From NCBI RefSeq assembly GCF_009905725.1, contig NZ_JAAAKV010000001.1, positions 496,001 through 560,000 of the forward strand: a DNA stretch of 64,000 nucleotides, given 5' to 3'. Each line of letters begins with the position of its first letter. Within the stretch, counting starts at the first letter, position 1. This DNA comes from Emticicia sp. CRIBPO (GTDB lineage: Bacteria; Bacteroidota; Bacteroidia; Cytophagales; Spirosomataceae). The notes beneath the pieces are model-generated. The model made no database searches and was not told where the DNA came from. It worked only from the letters and a program-made list of their open reading frames with translations. This document shows, piece by piece, positions 4,878 through 14,667 of this stretch. The position numbers and the translations under genes were made by a program.

Positions 4878-5714
4878 ATGAAAACAATTACACTACCCGA
4901 CGAATTAATTTCAGATGATTTACAATCCGTTCAGGTTTTTGACTACCGCAGCTCAAAAGAAATTGCTAAACAGCAAATTATTCTGAATCAAAATACATTT
5001 AGTTTTTTAACTGAGGGGCATAAAGAAGTTGTTTTTGACAACTCAACTTTATCAATCGACAATTCCAGATTTCTCATCATGAAGTCAGGACATTGCCTGA
5101 TGACCGAAAAACTCTCAGACATCAAAAATTATAGAAGTATACTTCTGTTCTTTACTAATGAAGTCCTGTTAAAATTCATGCGGAAAGCCGAACTGCCTAA
5201 AACCGGATCAACCGAATATAAATCCGTTTACTCATTCGGATACGATGAATTTATCCAACGCTTTGTAAACAGCTTGCTGGATATTTCCAAACTTTCAAGG
5301 AAGATACAGAAGAAATTGCTGGAAGTGAAGTTTGAAGAGATAATGCTCTATATTACAGAAATATACGGAACTGAGTTCCTATACTCGCTGACAGTAAACA
5401 GTGACGATACTACGCAAAAATTCATCCGGACCATTGAAAGCAATCAACTGAGTAAGCTGACATTAAAGGAATTGGCGTTTTTGTGTAATATGAGTATCTC
5501 TACATTCAAGCGGGAATTTGAAAAACACTACTCTGAATCGCCTGTCAGGTGGCTTCAAAATAAAAGACTGGAACACGCACATTATTTGCTTAACCAGGAG
5601 CAGAAAAAATCGTCCGAGATTTATCTTGAAGTTGGTTACGAGAATTTATCGAGCTTTACTCAGGCTTATAAATCGAAATACGGGATCACACCCAAACAGC
5701 ATCATAAAAATTGA
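4878..5714 (+). CDS. AraC family transcriptional regulator (1)
   Basis: A 278-residue DNA-binding regulator. The last 100 residues form the double helix-turn-helix of the AraC/XylS family: a first HTH around LCNMSISTFKREFEKHY and a second ending in YENLSSFTQAYKSKYGITP, the usual family signature. The first 150 residues are a variable ligand-sensing domain with no motif I can name. The gene has its own promoter, and the next gene, a secreted PEBP-like protein with a promoter of its own, is the obvious candidate target; this is inferred from position only. The start is supported by the promoter spacing. A second ATG six bases upstream is out of frame and stops at once. Confidence 0.9.
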   Translation: MKTITLPDELISDDLQSVQVFDYRSSKEIAKQQIILNQNTFSFLTEGHKEVVFDNSTLSIDNSRFLIMKSGHCLMTEKLSDIKNYRSILLFFTNEVLLKFMRKAELPKTGSTEYKSVYSFGYDEFIQRFVNSLLDISKLSRKIQKKLLEVKFEEIMLYITEIYGTEFLYSLTVNSDDTTQKFIRTIESNQLSKLTLKELAFLCNMSISTFKREFEKHYSESPVRWLQNKRLEHAHYLLNQEQKKSSEIYLEVGYENLSSFTQAYKSKYGITPKQHHKN

Positions 5715-5801: not shown

Positions 5802-6356
5802 ATGAAAAAAACAAATTTAATTTTAGGGCTGTCCCTGATTTTCTCAACGGCACTTTTCGGGCAGAAGACATTTACTTTATCAAGTAAGGATTTGGGCGGA
5901 GAAACCACTAAAATGCAAGAGTTCAACGGGTTTGGATGTTCGGGAGACAACCTATCGCCTCAACTATCCTGGAAAAATGCACCCGAAGGGACAGAAAGTT
6001 TTGCTATTACAATGTATGACCCTGATGCACCTACGGGAAGTGGGTTTTGGCATTGGGTTGTATTTGATATTCCATCGGACATAAACGAGTTAGTGACAAA
6101 CGCAGGCAATGTTAAACTTAATTTAGCACCTAAAGGAGCCATACAAAGCAAAACAGACTACGGAATTAATGGTTTTGGAGGTCCTTGCCCACCTGTTGGC
6201 CACGGTTTTCATCAGTACATCATAACGGTTCATGCGTTAAAAACTGACAAATTAGGACTTGACGGAAACATTAATCCTGCTGTTGTTGGTTTTTATCTCT
6301 GGAATAATACGCTTGCAAAAGCAAGTATTGTAGCCTATTACAAACGGGACAAATAG
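5802..6356 (+). CDS. Secreted YbhB/YbcL family (PEBP, Raf-kinase-inhibitor-like) protein
   Basis: A 184-residue protein with an N-terminal signal peptide (LILGLSLIFSTALFGQ, cut near residue 20) and the phosphatidylethanolamine-binding-protein fold. The conserved ligand-pocket motifs are visible: YDPDAPTGSGFWHWVVFDIP in the middle and GPCPPVGHGFHQY towards the C-terminus. The bacterial family binds small anionic or phospholipid-like ligands; no enzymatic reaction is established. The signal peptide puts it in the periplasm. It sits between two AraC genes, all on the same strand, and has its own -7 motif. Its length is usual for the family. Confidence 0.9.
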   Translation: MKKTNLILGLSLIFSTALFGQKTFTLSSKDLGGETTKMQEFNGFGCSGDNLSPQLSWKNAPEGTESFAITMYDPDAPTGSGFWHWVVFDIPSDINELVTNAGNVKLNLAPKGAIQSKTDYGINGFGGPCPPVGHGFHQYIITVHALKTDKLGLDGNINPAVVGFYLWNNTLAKASIVAYYKRDK

Positions 6357-6530: not shown

Positions 6531-7403
6531 ATGACAACAGACATCATAAAATACGACTTCAAGACAGGACTTCCGCAGGAATTTGAAATTGTGGACATCG
6601 CAAGATTATACAAAGAGTTCAAAGGCACTTTAACCACAACACACAGGACAGACTTTTACCACATCATTTGGTTTCAGCAGGGTAGCCCAACGCATTTGGT
6701 TGACTTCAAACCAATTAAAATTAAGTCCAACACCTTATTGTTTTTAAATAAAGACATCGTTCAACGTTTTGATGACAAAAGCAAATTCGGAGGAAAAGCC
6801 ATTTTGTTTACCGACAGTTTTTTCTGCAAGACTGAAGCCGACCATAAGTTTTTACGAAACAGTATTCTGTTCAATGACTTGTTTTCAGTTTCTCAAATTC
6901 AAGCCCAAAAGCAATCAAAATTATTTTCGGATCTGCTCCAACAAATGACGGACGAACTTCAAGGCATCAAAGACAATTCCCAAGCCGACATTTTACAAAA
7001 CTTACTGCATAATTTCTTGCTTCATTCGGAAAGAGAAAGACGCAAACAAAACTTTACCGAAATAAAAAAAGGTGCAGACCTTGATTACGTCATGCTCTTT
7101 AAAGACCTTTTGGAAACTGATTATAAAAATCAAAAGCAAGTCAATTACTACGCCAAACAAATAATCATTACCGAAAAACGCCTGAACCAGGCCACTGCAA
7201 AGATTTTGGGCAAATCGCCTAAAGAACTCATTGACGACCGGGTACTTTTAGAAGCCAAAAGAATTTTAGCTCACACTACCGAGAGCGTAAAGGAAATTGC
7301 CTATAACCTGGGCTTTGAAGAGCCTACCAATTTCATCAAATACTTCAAAAAACACTCGACACTTACGCCAAGCGAATTTAGAGAAAAAAATACCCTGGCG
7401 TAA
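6531..7403 (+). CDS. AraC family transcriptional regulator (2)
   Basis: A 290-residue regulator. The N-terminal part has the cupin-like AraC sensing features (YHIIWFQQGSPTHLVDF, then NTLLFLNKDIVQRF), and the C-terminal part carries the AraC DNA-binding region (YAKQIIITEKRLNQATAKI, then AYNLGFEEPTNFIKYFKKH, ending LTPSEFR). It is followed after 83 bp by a gene for a secreted SnoaL/NTF2-like protein on the same strand, a pairing that makes that gene its likely target. Upstream lies a hairpin-rich spacer and only a weak -7 match (TAATTGTG). It differs in sequence from the AraC proteins at 4878 and 9536, so these are not recent copies of each other. Confidence 0.9.
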   Translation: MTTDIIKYDFKTGLPQEFEIVDIARLYKEFKGTLTTTHRTDFYHIIWFQQGSPTHLVDFKPIKIKSNTLLFLNKDIVQRFDDKSKFGGKAILFTDSFFCKTEADHKFLRNSILFNDLFSVSQIQAQKQSKLFSDLLQQMTDELQGIKDNSQADILQNLLHNFLLHSERERRKQNFTEIKKGADLDYVMLFKDLLETDYKNQKQVNYYAKQIIITEKRLNQATAKILGKSPKELIDDRVLLEAKRILAHTTESVKEIAYNLGFEEPTNFIKYFKKHSTLTPSEFREKNTLA

Positions 7404-7486
7404 AAGTATCACTCAAAGGCTTATTCTTACCTTTTCCATTTTTACCGTTTGTAGCACCTTTGCATTGTAATTAAAAACAAAGCAAA

Positions 7487-8347
7487 ATGAACAAAATAAT
7501 TTTAGCTGCAACGATAATTTCAGGACTTGGATTGTCGACGGCAAACGCACAAAACAAGTCAATTTCTAAAACAAAAAAAACAGTAAAAATGGAAAACAAA
7601 CAACAAGTAGTAAGCCTGCTGAAAGCAATTGAAACAGGGGCGGCAGAACCCATCGGATACATTAATCCAAACAAATACATTCAGCACAATTTAGGTGCGG
7701 CAGACGGACTTGCGGGCTTTGGGGCACTATTGCAGGCTTTACCACCCAACTCTGCAAAAGTCAATACAGTCCGTGCCTTTCAGGACGGAGATTTTGTTTT
7801 CACTCATACGGACTATGATTTTTTCGGCCCTAAAACCGGCTTTGACATTTTCCGGTTTGAAGATGGTAAAATTGTAGAACATTGGGACAATTTGCAAGAA
7901 ACGGCAATGCCAAATCCAAGTGGACATACAATGATTGACGGAGCAACTGAACTCAAAGACCTTGACAAAACAGAAGCAAACAAAACTTTGGTCAGAAGTT
8001 TTGTGGACGACATTTTAGTGAATGGGAAAATGGAGAAGTTAGCCGGCTACTTTGATGGCGACAACTACATTCAACACAATCCAGCCATTCCAGACCAACT
8101 TTCAGGACTTGGTAAGACACTCGAAGCACTTGGCAAACAAGGCATCTTTCTGAAATACGACAAAATCCACAGAGTGCTTGGAGAAGGAAATTTTGTATTG
8201 GTTGTAAGCGAAGGACATTTCGGAAAAAGCCACAATTCTTTCTACGATTTATTCCGTGTAGAAAATGGTAAAATCGCTGAACATTGGGACGTTATTGAAC
8301 CCATAGCACCAAAAGAAACCTGGAAAAACAACAACGGAAAATTCTGA
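7487..8347 (+). CDS. Secreted tandem SnoaL-like / NTF2-family protein
   Basis: A 286-residue protein with a signal peptide (IILAATIISGLGLSTANAQ) and two copies of a SnoaL-like, NTF2-fold domain, at about residues 35-145 and 160-280. Both copies carry the pair YIQHN near the start and a KI(V/A)EHWD motif near the end, so the gene arose by internal duplication. Such domains form a cone-shaped pocket; some are polyketide cyclases or isomerases, but most, as here, have no assigned reaction. A sequence resembling a -7 motif (CACCTTTG, 7455-7462) precedes it. Its 3' end and terminator are repeated near 14262, next to a decayed copy of the second domain. Confidence 0.85.
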   Translation: MNKIILAATIISGLGLSTANAQNKSISKTKKTVKMENKQQVVSLLKAIETGAAEPIGYINPNKYIQHNLGAADGLAGFGALLQALPPNSAKVNTVRAFQDGDFVFTHTDYDFFGPKTGFDIFRFEDGKIVEHWDNLQETAMPNPSGHTMIDGATELKDLDKTEANKTLVRSFVDDILVNGKMEKLAGYFDGDNYIQHNPAIPDQLSGLGKTLEALGKQGIFLKYDKIHRVLGEGNFVLVVSEGHFGKSHNSFYDLFRVENGKIAEHWDVIEPIAPKETWKNNNGKF

Positions 8348-8429
8348 CAGACTTCATTTACAGGCAGACAAAAGCCATTCTCATTTTTGGGAGTGGCTTT
8401 CTTGTGGGCGGGAAACTACTGCCGCTTAC
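8282..8429 (+). repeat. Direct repeat, copy A (148 bp)
   Basis: This block covers the last 22 codons of the SnoaL-like gene, its terminator-like hairpin and the start of the following spacer. It recurs at 14262-14409 with only a handful of substitutions and no length change. The two copies flank about 5.8 kb that holds the SDR, AraC 3, aldo/keto reductase, lipoprotein, FemAB-like and Flavodoxin_2 genes. Confidence 0.9.
8371..8400 (+). terminator. Terminator-like hairpin after the SnoaL-like gene
   Basis: AAAGCCATTCTC at 8371-8382 pairs with GGGAGTGGCTTT at 8389-8400, using one G-U pair and one mismatch, 24 bp after the stop codon. The T-run after the stem is short, so termination may be partial. 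The same hairpin in the second copy (14351-14380) carries a compensating G-to-A change. Confidence 0.6.
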
Positions 8430-8571
8430 AAGGTATTTGCAGAAGAAGGGCTGAAGTACAAACTTCAGCTTTTGTGCTTCTATTAAACTTTTGTACGTTA
8501 GTGGAACGCTAAGTACATCTATTGCCCCACCTACATCTTACCAACAAGAACATGCAGACAAAAACACACTA
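8430..8571 (+). other. Spacer with strong hairpin
   Basis: GCTGAAGT at 8450-8457 and ACTTCAGC at 8462-8469 form a perfect 8-bp stem with an ACAA loop. AGAAG at 8441 and CTTCT at 8477 could extend it. No coding frame is supported. It lies between the repeat copy and the first operator copy. Confidence 0.5.
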
Positions 8572-8641
8572 CAATCAGTAATTTGTTTCCTTTTTTATAG
8601 TGGAATGTTTCTCTTACTTTTTTTAGCAGTTTTTACATTTG
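8572..8641 (+). promoter_or_regulatory. Operator copy 1 plus -7 motif for the SDR gene
   Basis: The block begins CAATCAGTAATTTGTTTCC, continues as a T-run and AGTGGAATGTTTC, and the -7 motif TACATTTG sits at 8634-8641, exactly 62 nt from the block's first base. The same block at the same distance is found at 10417 and 13380. The block's distance from the -7 motif suits an activator site. Which regulator binds is not shown; AraC 3 is the best candidate. Confidence 0.75.
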
Positions 8642-8665
8642 TGACTCGCAAATAAAAATTAAAAA

Positions 8666-9505
8666 ATGGCAAAAAGTAAAATTTATCTAATAACAGGTGC
8701 AGGTAGCGGACTTGGATTGGAAGTAGCAAAAACAGCACTTGCGGAAGGCAATAAGGTGGTTGCAACAGGCAGAGATGCCAACAAAATATCAAAAGCAATC
8801 AATAATACAACCGATAATTTGTTGGTAGTACAAATGGACGTTACTAAAACAAATGAAATAATTGCGGTTGTAAATTCGGCCATTGAAAAATTCGGAACAA
8901 TTGATGTGCTCGTGAACAATGCAGGAAACTTCTATGCAGGTTTCTTTGAAGGATTGAGTCAAAATCAGGTGGAACAACAAATTGCAACAAACTTGTTTGG
9001 ACCTATGAATGTTACACGGGCGATTTTACCATTGATGAGAAAAAATAAATCAGGGCATATCATCACCATTACATCTACTGCCGCTTTGGTGGGTTATGAA
9101 CTTTGTACGGCTTATGCCGCTTCCAAATTTGGATTAGAAGGTTTTATGGAATCCTTACAAATGGAAGTCGCACCATTTGGCATAAATACAACTATTGTAG
9201 AGCCAGGCTTTTTTAGAACAGAGCTATTGGGAACTTCGTCCATACAATGGTCAGAAATCGAAATAGCAGACTATGCAGAACGTTTGGCAATGCTTCGCCC
9301 AAATTGGGAATATAGGAACGGCAAACAAGGTGGCGACCCGGTAAAATTTGCCACAGCATTACTTAAAATTACCAATGAAGATACACCGCCAAAACGTTGG
9401 ATGGCAGGTGCAGACTGTTTGGCAGAAGTGGAAAGGAAAATAACGGAATTACAAGAGCAAGCAAGGGCTTATCGTGAATTATCTTTGTCACTTTCTTATG
9501 AATAA
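8666..9505 (+). CDS. SDR family NAD(P)-dependent oxidoreductase
   Basis: A 279-residue classical short-chain dehydrogenase/reductase. The cofactor motif TGAGSGLG is at residues 10-17, NNAGN follows in the middle, and the catalytic YxxxK is Y150-K154 (YAASK). These enzymes reduce or oxidise a carbonyl/alcohol with NAD(P)H in the cytoplasm; the substrate is unknown. The fold runs to about residue 250 and the tail is normal for the SDR5-like group. The promoter carries operator copy 1, shared with the aldo/keto reductase and the Flavodoxin_2 gene, so these three redox enzymes probably answer to one signal. AraC 3 follows on the same strand after 30 bp. Confidence 0.92.
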   Translation: MAKSKIYLITGAGSGLGLEVAKTALAEGNKVVATGRDANKISKAINNTTDNLLVVQMDVTKTNEIIAVVNSAIEKFGTIDVLVNNAGNFYAGFFEGLSQNQVEQQIATNLFGPMNVTRAILPLMRKNKSGHIITITSTAALVGYELCTAYAASKFGLEGFMESLQMEVAPFGINTTIVEPGFFRTELLGTSSIQWSEIEIADYAERLAMLRPNWEYRNGKQGGDPVKFATALLKITNEDTPPKRWMAGADCLAEVERKITELQEQARAYRELSLSLSYE

Positions 9506-9510
9506 ATACT

Positions 9511-9531
9511 AATCAGAAATTTCTAACTTTG
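9511..9531 (+). promoter_or_regulatory. Operator-like half site overlapping the AraC 3 promoter
   Basis: AATCAGAAATTT at 9511-9522 matches the first part of the shared operator (AATCAGTAATTT) at 11 of 12 positions and directly abuts the -7 motif TAACTTTG at 9524-9531. The ATG is at 9536, so transcription probably starts at or a few bases before it. Binding here would block rather than activate, which suggests autorepression. Confidence 0.5.
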
Positions 9532-9535
9532 TGGA

Positions 9536-10414
9536 ATGAAATTATTTAAAGACTTCAAAACTTACAATGAATATTTAGGGGTGTCAAAACCGTTAGATAA
9601 TGATATTGACATTGGGTATTACGAACCGGCGACTATGCTTCTAAAGTCGGACCCTGTAATGATTGATTTCTACAGAGTTTCTTTTAAAATAAATTTTACA
9701 GATAAAACAACACCGAACGCTAAACCTATTACTGCGGTATTTTTCAACAGTCCGGAAATGGTGGGAGGTTGGGATATTGAACCCACATTTTCGGGAATGT
9801 ATTTGCAACTTTCTAAAAAAATTATTGAAGAAAATCGTTTTTTGTTTAAAAATTATTTGGACTATGGACTGCACGAAGCTCTGTTTTTAACTGAAAGCGA
9901 ATTAGAGGAAATTAGCACCTTATACGGTTTAATGATAAAATATTATAACCAGGATAAACAAAATTATGGCGTACTTCTTTCTTATGTAAATGTATTAATA
10001 TCATTGGTAGAAGCATTTTATAAAAGACAATTTTCTGCCGACCCAAAACATTACAACCGTATCGTAACAGATTTTCAACAAAGCCTGAAAGATTATTACA
10101 ATGCACCGGTAAGTCAATCACCAAATGTTCAATTTTTTGCTGATAAATTAGGCTTAACACCAAACTATTTTGGCGACATCATCAAACACTTTACCCAAAA
10201 ATCTCCTATTGAAAACATTCACGAATTTGTAATCACGAAAGCAAAAGAAATGCTTGAAAAAAGAACCGATTTAAACAATACAGAAATTGCTTACGAATTA
10301 GGCTTTGAATATCCAAACTACTTTGCCAGGTTTTTTAAAAAACAAGTCAATCTCACCCCAAAAGAATATCGACTTAAGGTATTAGACAAACAATCTGCTA
10401 TGGAACGAATGTAA
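9536..10414 (+). CDS. AraC family transcriptional regulator (3)
   Basis: A 292-residue regulator with a C-terminal AraC DNA-binding domain: first HTH near VQFFADKLGLTPNYFGDIIK, second ending in YELGFEYPNYFARFFKKQ and LTPKEYR. The N-terminal 170 residues are a cupin-type sensing domain typical of the family. Its stop is only 3 bp from operator copy 2, and a decayed copy of its C-terminal end lies directly in front of operator copy 3 (13308-13375), so regulator and operator appear to travel together. The -7 motif is so close to the ATG that the mRNA may be nearly leaderless. It is the best candidate regulator of the SDR, aldo/keto reductase and Flavodoxin_2 genes (inference). Confidence 0.9.
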   Translation: MKLFKDFKTYNEYLGVSKPLDNDIDIGYYEPATMLLKSDPVMIDFYRVSFKINFTDKTTPNAKPITAVFFNSPEMVGGWDIEPTFSGMYLQLSKKIIEENRFLFKNYLDYGLHEALFLTESELEEISTLYGLMIKYYNQDKQNYGVLLSYVNVLISLVEAFYKRQFSADPKHYNRIVTDFQQSLKDYYNAPVSQSPNVQFFADKLGLTPNYFGDIIKHFTQKSPIENIHEFVITKAKEMLEKRTDLNNTEIAYELGFEYPNYFARFFKKQVNLTPKEYRLKVLDKQSAMERM

Positions 10415-10416
10415 CC

Positions 10417-11650
<1,234 letters not shown>

Positions 11651-11670
11651 GAATTACACAAAATTTAAAC

Positions 11671-12106
11671 ATGAGAAAATTAGGAACCATCATAATTTTA
11701 AGCGGAATATTTTTTACGTCTTGTTGTAGCAATAAACTGCATTGCAAAAAATCCAACAAAAGAATTGGTATACACAAAATCAGACTACGCTTTAATAGGC
11801 AAAAAAGGAATTACAACATTTCCTAAAATGAAGGTAGAAACAAACTACATTTCAGACAGTACGATGCACTGGAAGACAACTAACAGTAAAGGTATAGTTG
11901 CCGAAGGAGATGAAAAAATAAGCTATGAGAAATTGACAGATAACTTGCATTTCCTGAACTGGGTAGAAAAAAATGGTTATGTAATTAGCCTGATCATAAA
12001 TACAAAAGATGGGAAGGTCAAAGCCTTTTGGAGTTTTAATGATGAAATGGCCAGAGGGAAAAGAAATTCAACGTTTACAGATGGTAAATTTGAGTTTGTA
12101 AATTAA
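11671..12106 (+). pseudogene. Frameshifted MoaF-like lipoprotein
   Basis: The first frame begins at ATG 11671 with a lipoprotein signal (IIILSGIFFTSC) and stops without a domain. The rest of the protein (KELVYTKSDYALIGKK, then MHWKTTNSKG and LNWVEKNGYVISLI) is read in another frame, from about 11758 to the stop at 12106. Joining the two frames in the stretch 11728-11764 gives a single lipoprotein of about 145 residues with a domain resembling the C-terminal part of MoaF, seen as a small secreted family in Bacteroidota. The shift could be a real mutation or a sequencing error in the A-rich stretch near 11745. It lies 20 bp after the reductase gene and is probably co-transcribed. Confidence 0.65.
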
Positions 12107-12152
12107 TACCAACAAAAAGGATAATTTTGATTAAAAAAACACCTCAAAAAAA

Positions 12153-13301
12153 TTGAAAACAACTTATTCTTTCAAGATATTCACCAATGTAACCGACTTG
12201 CCTTTAGAATGGGATTCATTGAGTACCAAAAATGTATTTTTGACTACACCATACCTCGAAGTTCTCGAAAAATCGGCTCCAGCCAACATGGTCTGCCATT
12301 TTATTGGGATTTACCAGGAAGATGAATTGGTTGGCATTGCACTTTCGCAATTTTTGAATTTAAATCAATTAGAATCTTTAGGGAATAGAGATAAGTGCAT
12401 AACAACAGCTATTCGAAATACTGTTTTCAAAAACCTTATTTCACATATTCTGATTATTGGAAACAATATGTTCACAGGTCAGAATGCCTTTTCTTTTTTG
12501 GATGAAACAGATAAAATCGAAGCATTGAAAACCTTAAAAATGGCTTCTGGAAGATTGAAAACAATTTTTAAGAACAAAGGACTAAAAGTACATATTACCA
12601 CTTTTAAAGATTTTGAAAACGAGGAAGTGACATCATTTCGGCAAGCTGGCTTTCTACAATATTTTCAATTTACGACTCAACCCAGTATGGTATTTGATAT
12701 TCCTAACCAATGGAAAACAGAGCAAGATTATATCAATGCTTTGTCTAAAAAATATCGTGACCAATACAAGCGGGCGAGGAAAAAATCCGAAGGCATCGAA
12801 AAAAGAAAGATGAATTTGGAAGACATAATTAAATACGAAGACACTATTTACAATATGTATCATCATGTAGCTAAAAATGCCTATTTCAATACTTTTTTTC
12901 TTACCAAAAACCACTTTCGAGTCTTTAAAGAATTATTGAAAGACAAGTTCCTTTTTTTTGGCTATTTCATGGATGAAAAACTGATTGGGTTTAATACATT
13001 GGTTGAAAACGGAACAATCATGGATACTTATTTTTTGGGATACGATGAAAGCATTCAACGTAAAAAAATGGTGTATTTGAATATGCTTTACGACATGGTT
13101 GCTTATTCCATAAATAAAGGTTTTGAAAAAATAATCTTTGCAAGAACCGCTTTGGAAATCAAGAGTTCCATTGGTGCTAAACCACAAGAAATGTACGGTT
13201 TTGCAAAACACAGCAATTTGATTGCAGACCTTACATTTGAAAAAGCTTTTAATTACTTGGAGCCAAAAGTAGTTTGGCAAGAACGAAACCCTTTTAATTA
13301 G
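12153..13301 (+). CDS. GNAT/FemAB-like acyltransferase superfamily protein
   Basis: A 382-residue protein read from a TTG start at 12153; there is a stop codon shortly upstream in frame and no better ATG. The overall pattern, an N-terminal half with HFIGIYQEDELVGIAL and a C-terminal half with FFGYFMDEKLIGFNTLVENG and a long basic stretch between them (KKYRDQYKRARKKSEG), is that of the duplicated GNAT fold in the FemAB-like group that transfers acyl or aminoacyl groups. I cannot name a substrate. It follows the broken lipoprotein gene after 46 bp. Its end abuts a remnant of an AraC gene. Confidence 0.65.
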   Translation: MKTTYSFKIFTNVTDLPLEWDSLSTKNVFLTTPYLEVLEKSAPANMVCHFIGIYQEDELVGIALSQFLNLNQLESLGNRDKCITTAIRNTVFKNLISHILIIGNNMFTGQNAFSFLDETDKIEALKTLKMASGRLKTIFKNKGLKVHITTFKDFENEEVTSFRQAGFLQYFQFTTQPSMVFDIPNQWKTEQDYINALSKKYRDQYKRARKKSEGIEKRKMNLEDIIKYEDTIYNMYHHVAKNAYFNTFFLTKNHFRVFKELLKDKFLFFGYFMDEKLIGFNTLVENGTIMDTYFLGYDESIQRKKMVYLNMLYDMVAYSINKGFEKIIFARTALEIKSSIGAKPQEMYGFAKHSNLIADLTFEKAFNYLEPKVVWQERNPFN

Positions 13302-13307
13302 GTAGAT

Positions 13308-13375
13308 GAATACCCTGATTATTTTCCAAATTATTCAAAAAGCTAGCAAGCCTAACCTTAAAAGAATATCGGTTT
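13308..13375 (+). pseudogene. Remnant of the C-terminal end of an AraC regulator gene
   Basis: Reading 13308-13325 gives EYPDYF; after loss of one base the next frame gives SKLFKKLASLTLKEYRF up to about 13371. This is the recognition-helix end and closing motif of an AraC protein (compare EYPNYFARFFKKQ and LTPKEYR in AraC 3). Nothing upstream of it is left; the FemAB-like gene ends just before it. It directly precedes operator copy 3, as AraC 3 directly precedes copy 2. Confidence 0.7.
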
Positions 13376-13379
13376 ATTT

Positions 13380-13449
13380 CAATCAGTAAATTGTTTCCTT
13401 TTTTGAAGTAGAATGTTTCCGGCCTTCGTCTTACGAAGTTTTAATTTTG
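13380..13449 (+). promoter_or_regulatory. Operator copy 3 plus -7 motif for the Flavodoxin_2 gene
   Basis: The first 25 bases match copies 1 and 2 at all but one position (A for T at the eleventh), followed by GAAGTAGAATGTTTCC. The -7 motif TAATTTTG is at 13442-13449, again 62 nt from the first base. Between block and promoter the three copies are not similar, so the spacing is kept while sequence is not. Confidence 0.75.
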
Positions 13450-13475
13450 TACCATAATCACAAAACAAATTTAAA

Positions 13476-14081
13476 ATGGCAGAAACAAAAAAAGTATTGC
13501 TTATCAATACACATTTGACCTATCCAAATTGGACAGAAGGAACTCTGAACAACTCATTTTTTAAAGTTGCAAAAGACTTTTTTGAAGCCAATGCTTGCGA
13601 AGTTTTAGAAACAATAATTGAAGATGGTTACCAACCAGACGAAGAAGTTAAAAAACACGTACAGGCCGATATCGTAATTTTGCAAACACCCATCAATTGG
13701 TTTGGAGCACCCTGGATTTACAAAAAATATGTGGACGAAGTTTTTAACAGTGCCCTGTTTAGTAAATCATTCCTGACTGGTGACGGCAGAACACCCGAAA
13801 ACCCGGCTGCTCAATATGGAACAGGCGGACTAATGCAAGGCAAAAAATTTATGATTTCAGCTACGTGGAATGCACCAACAGAAGCATTTGATAACCCTGA
13901 CCAAACCTTACTTCAAGGCAAAGGTTTATCAGATATGTTCTTACCCATTACAAGCAACTATCGTTTTTGTGGTTACGACATTTTAGACAGTTTTAATTGC
14001 TTCAACATTTACAGACGAACAGATATTGCCAAAGACGTTGCAAATTATCCGTCTCATTTAGCAAAAGTTCTAGGCTTATAA
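13476..14081 (+). CDS. NAD(P)H-dependent oxidoreductase, Flavodoxin_2 / MdaB family
   Basis: A 201-residue flavodoxin-fold enzyme. The FMN/FAD phosphate loop follows strand one (VLLINTHLTYPNW), and the family motif TPINWFGAPWIYKKYVDEVF is in the middle. The YGTGGLMQGKKFMIS segment and the late FNIYRR are typical of MdaB-like quinone reductases, which transfer two electrons from NAD(P)H to quinones via bound flavin. It lies under operator copy 3 and probably joins the SDR and aldo/keto reductase in a response to reactive carbonyls or quinones (inference). Its length is normal. Confidence 0.9.
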   Translation: MAETKKVLLINTHLTYPNWTEGTLNNSFFKVAKDFFEANACEVLETIIEDGYQPDEEVKKHVQADIVILQTPINWFGAPWIYKKYVDEVFNSALFSKSFLTGDGRTPENPAAQYGTGGLMQGKKFMISATWNAPTEAFDNPDQTLLQGKGLSDMFLPITSNYRFCGYDILDSFNCFNIYRRTDIAKDVANYPSHLAKVLGL

Positions 14082-14111
14082 AACGGACGGAACAAACCCT
14101 TCGAAAAAACA

Positions 14112-14327
14112 GGAGGTAGAAGGTATCACAATGAATACGACACGATGCACAAGGTATTAGGTGAAGGCAATTTTGTTTTAGTTCTTAGAGAAGGACATCT
14201 TGCAGGTAAGCACACTTCATTTTACGACTTGTTTAGAGCTGATAATTGAAAAGTTACCATGCATTGGGACATTATTGAACCCATAGCACCAAAAGAAAGC
14301 TGGAAAAACAACAACGGGAAATTCTGA
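14112..14327 (+). pseudogene. Decayed fragment of a SnoaL-like / NTF2-family gene
   Basis: The frame reads the last 70 codons of a protein close to the second domain of the gene at 7487: HKVLGEGNFVLVLREGH, then FYDLFRADN, then a TGA stop at 14247-14249 where the intact gene has a glycine codon, then MHWDIIEPIAPKESWKNNNG and the normal stop. There is no start region. The fragment merges into the 148-bp direct repeat. Divergence is greater before the repeat (roughly up to 14261) than inside it, which points to recombination or gene conversion of the end only. Confidence 0.8.
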
Positions 14328-14409
14328 CAGACTTCATTTACAGGCAGACAAAAGCCATTCTCATTTTTGGGAATGGCTTTCTTGTAGGCGGAAAACTACT
14401 GCCGCTAAC
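14262..14409 (+). repeat. Direct repeat, copy B (148 bp)
   Basis: Second copy of the block at 8282-8429, including the gene end and the hairpin at 14351-14380. In this copy the hairpin's right arm reads GGGAATGGCTTT, restoring an A-T pair where copy A has G-U. The similarity ends at GCCGCT, exactly where the inverted-repeat spacer begins. Confidence 0.9.
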
Positions 14410-14485
14410 ATTGGTTTGTCAAAATAGGGGCGGACGGAATTTTATTTCCCCTTCGACAACGCCTGTCCATTACCAATGTTGGACG
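14403..14485 (+). repeat. Inverted-repeat spacer element (attC-like)
   Basis: TAACATTGG at 14406-14414 pairs with CCAATGTTGG at 14473-14482; TTTGTC and GACAA lie inside as further arms. A GTTGGAC end fits the GTTRRRY core of integron attC sites, but the other end (CGCTAAC) fits poorly. It resembles the spacer at 6371. No integrase gene is in the window. Confidence 0.4.
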
Positions 14486-14667
14486 ATCACACAAACCAAA
14501 CAACAGCCAAAAAAATGATAAAAAAATAGCTTACGACTTTACGCCAATCAAAGACAATGTTTTAAGACACTTTATGACAACAAATCCGTGAGAATCTGCA
14601 AGACCACTATTAGTTGTCAGAAAGCAACTGAATATAGCGTATCTACAACTTTAAGTAGCCGGTTTTA
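14486..14667 (+). other. Gene-free stretch with a short decayed frame
   Basis: No intact gene. A short frame at about 14526-14597 reads IAYDFTPIKDNVLRHFMTTN and then stops; it looks like a protein scrap but I do not recognise it. No repeat or terminator is evident. Confidence 0.4.

What the first reader, a model, noticed from the sequence alone, without database searches (positions are those of the whole stretch)
8572..13449. Three promoters share a ~30-bp block at an identical distance of 62 nt from the -7 motif
At 8572, 10417 and 13380 the block CAATCAGTAA(T/A)TTGTTTCC plus a T-run and AGT is nearly identical, and TAnnTTTG starts exactly 62 nt later in all three (8634, 10479, 13442). The sequence between block and -7 box has diverged, while both ends and the spacing are kept. 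This indicates a bound regulator working on a fixed helical face, and a regulon of three redox enzymes (SDR, aldo/keto reductase, Flavodoxin_2). I know of no published description of this element.
Basis: partly seen in the sequence, partly recalled or inferred. Interest (0 to 1): 0.75.

Follow-up and report, generated by a model that had tools for sequence, protein, structure and literature searches.

The report
AraC-type operator fixed to promoter
Three enzyme genes share an upstream DNA site that is most likely where a neighbouring AraC-type switch protein sits to turn them on; the same site, at the same distance from the promoter, follows relatives of that protein in many bacteria of the same phylum, so this is a well-conserved but apparently undescribed member of a familiar kind of gene switch.

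Summary
Three copies of the block lie at 8572, 10417 and 13380, with TAnnTTTG exactly +62 in each; nothing else in the 6.06-Mb genome comes within two mismatches. The block is half of a larger element: a tandem direct repeat, AGTAATTTGTTTC and AGTAATCTGTTTCC, 22 bp apart, ending where the -33 region should be. It is a phylogenetic footprint. Of 52 AraC matches at >=60% identity to the window's AraC (9536-10414), 48 have the element just 3' of the gene, 47 with TAnnTTTG at +62 and one at +63, while the spacer is 37% identical. Over 88 sites, down to 32% AraC identity, 82 keep a strict or relaxed box at +62. In two genome samples all element carriers also carry this AraC: 4 of 149 (5 AraC carriers) and 9 of 248 (10 carriers). 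Best explanation: operator of this AraC protein, a class II activator of an MdaB/aldo-keto reductase/SDR module. Binding, activation and inducer are untested. New member of a known kind.

The parts
8577..8590 (+). distal half-site, element 1 (SDR-AraC operon)
8599..8612 (+). proximal half-site, element 1 (22 bp downstream)
8634..8641 (+). -7 box TACATTTG of element 1, +62
8666..9505 (+). SDR-family oxidoreductase, predicted target 1
   Evidence: Pfam adh_short 1.3e-54
9536..10414 (+). AraC/XylS-family regulator, proposed binder; 30 nt after SDR, probably co-transcribed with it
   Evidence: Pfam HTH_18 1.5e-18; co-occurrence with the element
10422..10435 (+). distal half-site, element 2 (AKR)
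10444..10457 (+). proximal half-site, element 2 (degraded)
10479..10486 (+). -7 box TACCTTTG of element 2, +62
10511..11650 (+). aldo/keto reductase with an SRRGFLQQ N-terminus that resembles a twin-arginine signal, predicted target 2
   Evidence: Pfam 5.2e-73; nearest solved chain perakine reductase; twin-arginine reading is recalled, not tested
13298..13390 (+). decayed remnant of the 3' end of an AraC gene (about 31 codons, two in-frame stops) running into element 3
   Evidence: tblastn 14/31 identical, E 4e-6 on a 105-nt target
13385..13398 (+). distal half-site, element 3 (mdaB-like gene)
13407..13420 (+). proximal half-site, element 3
13442..13449 (+). -7 box TAATTTTG of element 3, +62
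13476..14081 (+). Flavodoxin_2 protein of the MdaB type (NADPH-quinone reductase function recalled), predicted target 3
   Evidence: Pfam 4.9e-24; solved 'Modulator of drug activity B' chains, best E 2.6e-41

Best explanation
The block is the distal half of a tandem direct-repeat operator for the AraC-family protein encoded at 9536-10414. A dimer of that protein would place one DNA-binding domain on each repeat, about -69 to -56 and -47 to -34 if the -7 box is at -12 to -5 as reported for a flavobacterium. The proximal domain would then contact RNA polymerase at the place of the -33 element, making this a class II activator. One AraC protein would switch on three promoters: SDR plus araC itself (positive feedback), AKR, and mdaB. 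Shown by computation: the element, its repeat structure, its fixed geometry, its footprint conservation and its co-occurrence with this AraC. Inferred: that AraC binds it, that binding activates, and that the signal is an electrophile such as a quinone or aldehyde.
For: (1) AraC matches at >=60% identity give 52 rows; 49 scored a block of 6 mismatches or fewer within -40..+300 nt of the AraC 3' end, one of them by chance (L059), so 48 are real; 47 have TAnnTTTG at +62 and one (L089) at +63. (2) Information is concentrated in two half-sites, the T-run and the -7 box; over 47 elements the spacer is 37% identical, half-sites 87% and 75%. (3) The halves are direct repeats: PWM self-match 1.36 at offset 22, next best 0.43. 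(4) Of 88 sites, 82 have a strict or relaxed -7 box at +62 and 2 at +63. Both +63 cases (L089, L115) have one extra base between the half-sites and keep the proximal-half-to-(-7) distance of their clade. (5) A PWM of the operator alone gives no score above 5 in the reversed sequence (725,558 bases, both strands) and 59 sites above 14 in the real sequence; 9 of the 12 sites outside its training set have TAnnTTTG at +62. (6) Genomes: elements in 4 of 149, all among the 5 with this AraC (the window's genome included); in 9 of 248, all among the 10 with it. (7) In one MAG (G248) the only element found lies on a different contig from AraC and still has +62, as a trans-acting factor predicts. (8) Element 3 has kept its operator although the AraC gene beside it has decayed to a remnant. 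(9) AraC-family activators with a fixed site-to-promoter spacing are documented: AggR, 22 bp to -10 (PMC6392122, passages); CdhR binds direct repeats (PMC5806209, passages).
Against: No binding, expression or TSS data exist for this organism in anything I saw. L040 has an AraC at 77% identity and no element within the fetched flanks. G193 and G452 have an AraC match (34-37%, each with a stop codon in the matched frame) and no model hit. Four of 88 sites have no recognisable -7 box. In the distant clades the box is often nAnnTTT(G/A), not strict TAnnTTTG: 17 of the 82 sites at +62 are of the relaxed kind. PWM and model R1 were trained on AraC-adjacent elements, and some genomes contain training loci. 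In G031 the only element lies 5', not 3', of AraC. Between clades the proximal half-site shifts by one base relative to the -7 box (35 or 36), so the geometry is not absolutely fixed. I did not test for covariation between AraC residues and half-site bases. CdhR, which binds direct repeats, is a class I activator. Position favours activation, but repression cannot be excluded from sequence.
Confidence: 0.85

Rival explanations
1. The three copies are recent duplicates of one promoter; the shared spacing is inherited by copying and has no function.
For: The cluster is rearranged and of low G+C (35% against 44% for the rest of the window). Element 3 carries an AraC-gene remnant, so at least this copy probably arose by duplication of an AraC-operator unit. 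A 277-bp repeat joins 8154-8430 to 14134-14410 at 82%.
Against: Within the window the spacers are only 35-55% identical while the distal half-sites are 93-100%. The same geometry is found in dozens of other loci with 37% spacer identity. Copying explains origin, not retention.
Confidence: 0.04
2. The AraC protein binds here but represses, blocking polymerase at the -33 region.
For: The proximal half-site would overlap the -33 region.
Against: A fixed distance to the core promoter and a site reaching the -33/-35 region are what AggR-type activators show (PMC6392122, passages). A repressor would be expected to tolerate varied positions (inference).
Confidence: 0.06
3. A different, unlinked regulator binds the element and AraC is a bystander.
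For: Binding was not tested.
Against: 13 of 13 element-bearing genomes in the two samples also carry this AraC, and the element is usually just 3' of it.
Confidence: 0.03
4. The element acts as RNA (attenuator, riboswitch or terminator).
For: A hairpin with MFE of -8 kcal/mol or lower lies in the 58 nt before the block in 35 of 49 rows, a likely araC terminator (no shuffled control was run).
Against: RNAalifold predicts no pair in the 50-sequence alignment; no Rfam match in window 7400-14500. The element lies upstream of the predicted start of the target transcript.
Confidence: 0.01

Closest known systems
E. coli AraC at araI1-araI2
   Same: AraC-family dimer on two adjacent operators, recruiting RNA polymerase when bound to both (PMC4760080, passages). 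A half-site spacing of about 21 bp and overlap with -35 are recalled, from no call.
   Different: Different half-site sequence, phylum, -33/-7 promoter type and target genes; an upstream looping site was not looked for.
AggR (AraC-XylS activator)
   Same: Binding site at a fixed distance from the -10 box (22 bp best), thought to contact sigma domain 4 (PMC6392122, passages).
   Different: A single AggR site suffices; here two direct half-sites and a Bacteroidota TAnnTTTG box.
E. coli YqhC-yqhD-yqhE (dkgA)
   Same: AraC-family activator beside reductase genes, one an aldo-keto reductase, answering electrophiles (PMC5297802, passages).
   Different: YqhC is divergently transcribed; here AraC lies upstream in the same direction, followed by the operator. 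The commonest target here is mdaB. Homology to YqhC was not tested, and the inducer is unknown.

Membership tests
AraC/XylS family regulator | C-terminal AraC-type helix-turn-helix domain | tested here: met
   HTH_18 1.5e-18, residues 202-279, and HTH_AraC 3.9e-07; PDB sequence matches to YesN and SoxS
AraC/XylS family regulator | N-terminal effector/dimerisation domain | tested here: inconclusive
Class II AraC-type direct-repeat operator | two direct half-sites about two helical turns apart | tested here: met
   period 22 in 61, 21 in 26, 23 in 1 of 88 sites, by best match to five consensus strings of my own
Class II AraC-type direct-repeat operator | proximal half-site abuts the -33/-35 element at fixed distance from the core promoter | tested here: met
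   proximal half to -7 = 35 in 58 and 36 in 26 of 88; 4 without a box; TSS position taken from PMC9723704 (passages), not measured here
Class II AraC-type direct-repeat operator | protein binds and activates | not testable with these tools
   needs EMSA, footprint or reporter
YqhC-type electrophile response | induction by glyoxal, furfural or similar | not testable with these tools
   analogy from target enzymes only
Thiol-based redox sensor | conserved cysteine | tested here: not met
   window AraC has no Cys; 33 of 51 aligned homologues have none (distant rows shortened at the 3' end); the fullest Cys column has 8 of 51

The most novel reading that the evidence does not exclude
The AraC gene, its terminator, the tandem operator and the locked -7 promoter form one portable 'sensor plus promoter' cassette that moves between Bacteroidota and drives exchangeable detoxification genes (mdaB, AKR, SDR, zinc ADH, hydrolases, SMP-30-like), answering a quinone or aldehyde signal through a cysteine-free ligand domain. 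The operator can stay behind and act in trans after the local regulator decays.
Probability: 0.45. Interest if true: 0.6.

Novelty: new member of a known kind. Interest (0 to 1): 0.47.

Why it matters
[quoted passage not shown] Here sequence alone gives a regulator, its half-sites to the base, their spacing, the promoter and the target genes. It is directly testable and could give a compact inducible promoter for Bacteroidota. It also suggests that activators may take the place of a weak -33 element in this phylum.

Tried and rejected
A short-block search over 247 genomes (the window's and its relatives) gave matches in 74 at up to 2 mismatches. Apart from G000's three perfect ones these have 1 or 2 mismatches; I did not inspect them one by one, because the full-length model R1 over 149 genomes (the window's and its relatives) found only 4 genomes.

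RNA element rejected: no consensus structure, no Rfam hit.

Autoregulation through a half-site over AraC's own promoter: the window has AATCAGAAATTTCT just before araC, but over 53 upstream regions the best half-site score reaches 12 of 17 or more in 11, against 4 in reversed controls. Weak, and not supported as a general feature.

Plasmid carriage: 8 plasmid records matched at E <= 1e-20, none covering 80% of the query, all under 60% identity. No evidence of plasmid mobility.

AraC structure: never ran.

Literature: nine searches were answered. Terms: AraC/Bacteroidetes/TAnnTTTG; AraC/AKR/SDR; YqhC; TAnnTTTG/Flavobacterium; class II direct repeat (42); AraC/Chryseobacterium/flavodoxin; araI1/araI2 (46); literal half-site strings; mdaB/AraC. 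I saw titles and abstract beginnings only, and only 20, 20 and 12 of 297, 295 and 212 papers were listed (in one search, 10 of 11). Nothing listed described this operator. One search returned one paper, on insect RNAi, unrelated. The library omits most subscription papers.
Full report
CHECK. The window has exactly three matches to CAATCAGTAAWTTGTTTCC at up to 3 mismatches, all perfect, at 8572, 10417 and 13380; shuffles give 0.07 on average. TAnnTTTG starts at +62 in each. The window's genome (6.06 Mb, 39 contigs) has no other match within 2 mismatches, and model R1, built from 50 elements including these three, finds only these three in it at E <= 0.001. Downstream are an SDR, an aldo/keto reductase and a Flavodoxin_2 protein. 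The last is MdaB-like: three solved 'Modulator of drug activity B' sequences match at E 2.6e-41 to 3e-34. Distances from the first T of the -7 box to the ATG are 32, 32 and 34 nt.

FOOTPRINT. One scan of the genome collection with the AraC protein at 9536 found 119 relatives and kept the best 80, giving 79 loci, L039-L117. AraC matches at >=60% identity give 52 rows (L080 twice). In 49 the best block match within -40..+300 nt of the AraC 3' end has 6 mismatches or fewer; 47 of the 49 have TAnnTTTG at +62 and one (L089) at +63. The last of the 49 (L059) is a chance match; its real element lies further downstream at 5961. The three misses are L040, L045 and L050. L045 and L050 have the element further downstream with +62; L040 has none in the fetched DNA.

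ANATOMY. Per-column information shows two conserved blocks, a T-run between them, and the -7 box; the 20 nt before the -7 box are far less conserved. The two blocks are direct repeats, AGTAATTTGTTTC(C/T) and AGTAATCTGTTTCC, at offset 22 (self-match 1.36, next best 0.43). Mean pairwise identity over 47 elements chosen for having a box at +62: distal half 0.87, T-run 0.88, proximal half 0.75, spacer 0.37, -7 box 0.85. With the three window copies added, the 50 spacers fall into 11 groups at 60% single linkage and 31 at 70%, so the geometry is not one recent copy. In those 50, no second TAnnTTTG starts between +42 and +86.

SPACING ACROSS CLADES. I tabulated 88 sites, including distant AraC clades of 32-53% identity; before the count I dropped AraC rows whose best block had more than 7 mismatches and the chance rows of seven loci. 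The -7 box is at +62 in 82 (65 strict TAnnTTTG, 17 relaxed nAnnTTT(G/A)), at +63 in 2, and not recognised in 4. The repeat period is 22 in 61, 21 in 26 and 23 in 1. The proximal half lies 35 bp from the -7 box in 58 and 36 in 26. Two readings compete. The two +63 sites, L089 and L115, have one base more between the half-sites and keep the proximal distance of their clade, as if the proximal half were locked to the promoter. But between clades the proximal distance moves by one while the distal +62 stays. In the distant group that I called c2 (15 elements) the box mostly reads GAnnTTT rather than TAnnTTTG.

REGULATOR. Whole-genome searches separate this from a neighbourhood effect. Among 149 genomes (the window's and its relatives), R1 hits 4, and these 4 are among the 5 with an AraC at E <= 1e-40. 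Among 248 (Flavobacterium reichenbachii, G249, and its relatives), R1 hits 9, all among the 10 with that AraC. The searches over many genomes used stricter filters that lose weak matches; some genomes contain training loci, and genomes are related, so I give no p-value. In 23 genomes reached through AraC loci each has one or two elements, 27 in all; 26 lie on a contig of the same length as that of the AraC locus. In the distant G053 and G009 the AraC gene is flanked by elements on both sides, and in G031 the element found is 5' of AraC. In G248 the only element is on another contig than its AraC and precedes a reading frame with a hydrolase-like part, with +62 kept; this is a MAG, so binning error is possible.

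TARGETS. Of 53 first genes downstream in the main clade, the window's three included, 30 match Flavodoxin_2, 16 aldo/keto reductase, 3 SDR, 1 zinc alcohol dehydrogenase. Of 28 in distant clades, 19 match Hydrolase_4, 5 SMP-30-like, 2 NmrA, 1 Flavodoxin_2, 1 pirin. First genes were picked mechanically (first ATG frame of 100 aa or more); two sites gave none (L072, L082), and four frames listed were not passed on: one duplicate (L085), and three at sites without a -7 box, two of them AraC genes. An MdaB homologue is present in 47 of 53 loci L039-L091, and 15 have the order AraC, operator, AKR, mdaB. L071 and L080 show operator-SDR-AraC-operator-mdaB, the arrangement closest to the window.

ORIGIN OF THE WINDOW CLUSTER. 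L039, a Chryseobacterium MAG, has AraC-operator-AKR-mdaB contiguous and its DNA is 79-81% identical to window 9535-11650 and 13462-14126. In the window 1.8 kb separates AKR from mdaB, and mdaB has its own operator preceded by a decayed AraC 3' end at 13298-13390 (E 4e-6 on a 105-nt target, two stops). The cluster is 34.9% G+C against 44.4% for the rest of the window; among nine other genomes of the genus only G009 has a related AraC at E <= 1e-40, at 40% identity. Horizontal gain and later rearrangement is the simplest reading.

MECHANISM. The -7 box lies at -12 to -5 in Flavobacterium psychrophilum (PMC9723704, passages). That puts the half-sites at about -69..-56 and -47..-34, so the proximal one ends at the -33 region. 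AraC-XylS activators at such places are thought to contact sigma (PMC6392122, passages). I infer class II activation by an AraC dimer. Because element 1 precedes SDR and AraC, with 30 nt between the two genes, I infer positive feedback. The protein has no cysteine, so a bound ligand is likelier than thiol oxidation. The YqhC analogy (PMC5297802, passages) and the MdaB, AKR and SDR targets suggest quinones or aldehydes; this is the weakest step.

NOVELTY. Nine answered literature searches, including literal half-site strings, listed no description (listings only, four of them capped). The kind of switch is well known; this regulator-operator pair appears undescribed within what those searches showed.

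Noticed in passing
window 9524-9531 and upstream of AraC in other loci: The araC gene has TAACTTTG starting exactly 12 nt before its ATG. The same -12 position holds TAnnTTTG in 15 of 53 upstream regions, the window included (2 more at -13), which predicts a leaderless araC mRNA starting at the A of the start codon.
   Followed up: partly
window 8154-8430 and 14134-14410: A 277-bp repeat at 82% identity: the end of the SnoaL-like gene at 7487-8347 and what follows it recur after the mdaB-like gene.
   Followed up: no
window 8428-8527 and L039 6786-6884: The stretch just before element 1 matches (85%) the DNA that follows mdaB in L039, another sign of shuffling in the cluster.
   Followed up: no
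58 nt before the block in AraC loci: 35 of 49 rows have a fold of -8 kcal/mol or lower just before the operator, and most of the examples printed end in a T-run: a likely araC terminator. Window element 2 directly follows the araC stop codon.
   Followed up: partly
L043 6168 (-): An extra element with +62, on the other strand, precedes a gene of 154 codons; the putative lumazine-binding match is probably this one, as that table gives counts, not names.
   Followed up: no
L084 and L085: Two 4-kb contigs with the same AraC coordinates and the same element sequence are binned as Rhodocyclaceae and Candidatus Dojkabacteria, probably MAG binning errors.
   Followed up: no
window 4878-5714 and 6531-7403: Two further AraC-family regulators lie just upstream of the cluster, also at low G+C (36-38%); their targets are unknown.
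   Followed up: no
window 12153-13301: A 382-aa reading frame without Pfam or NCBIfam match lies between AKR and the AraC remnant.
   Followed up: no
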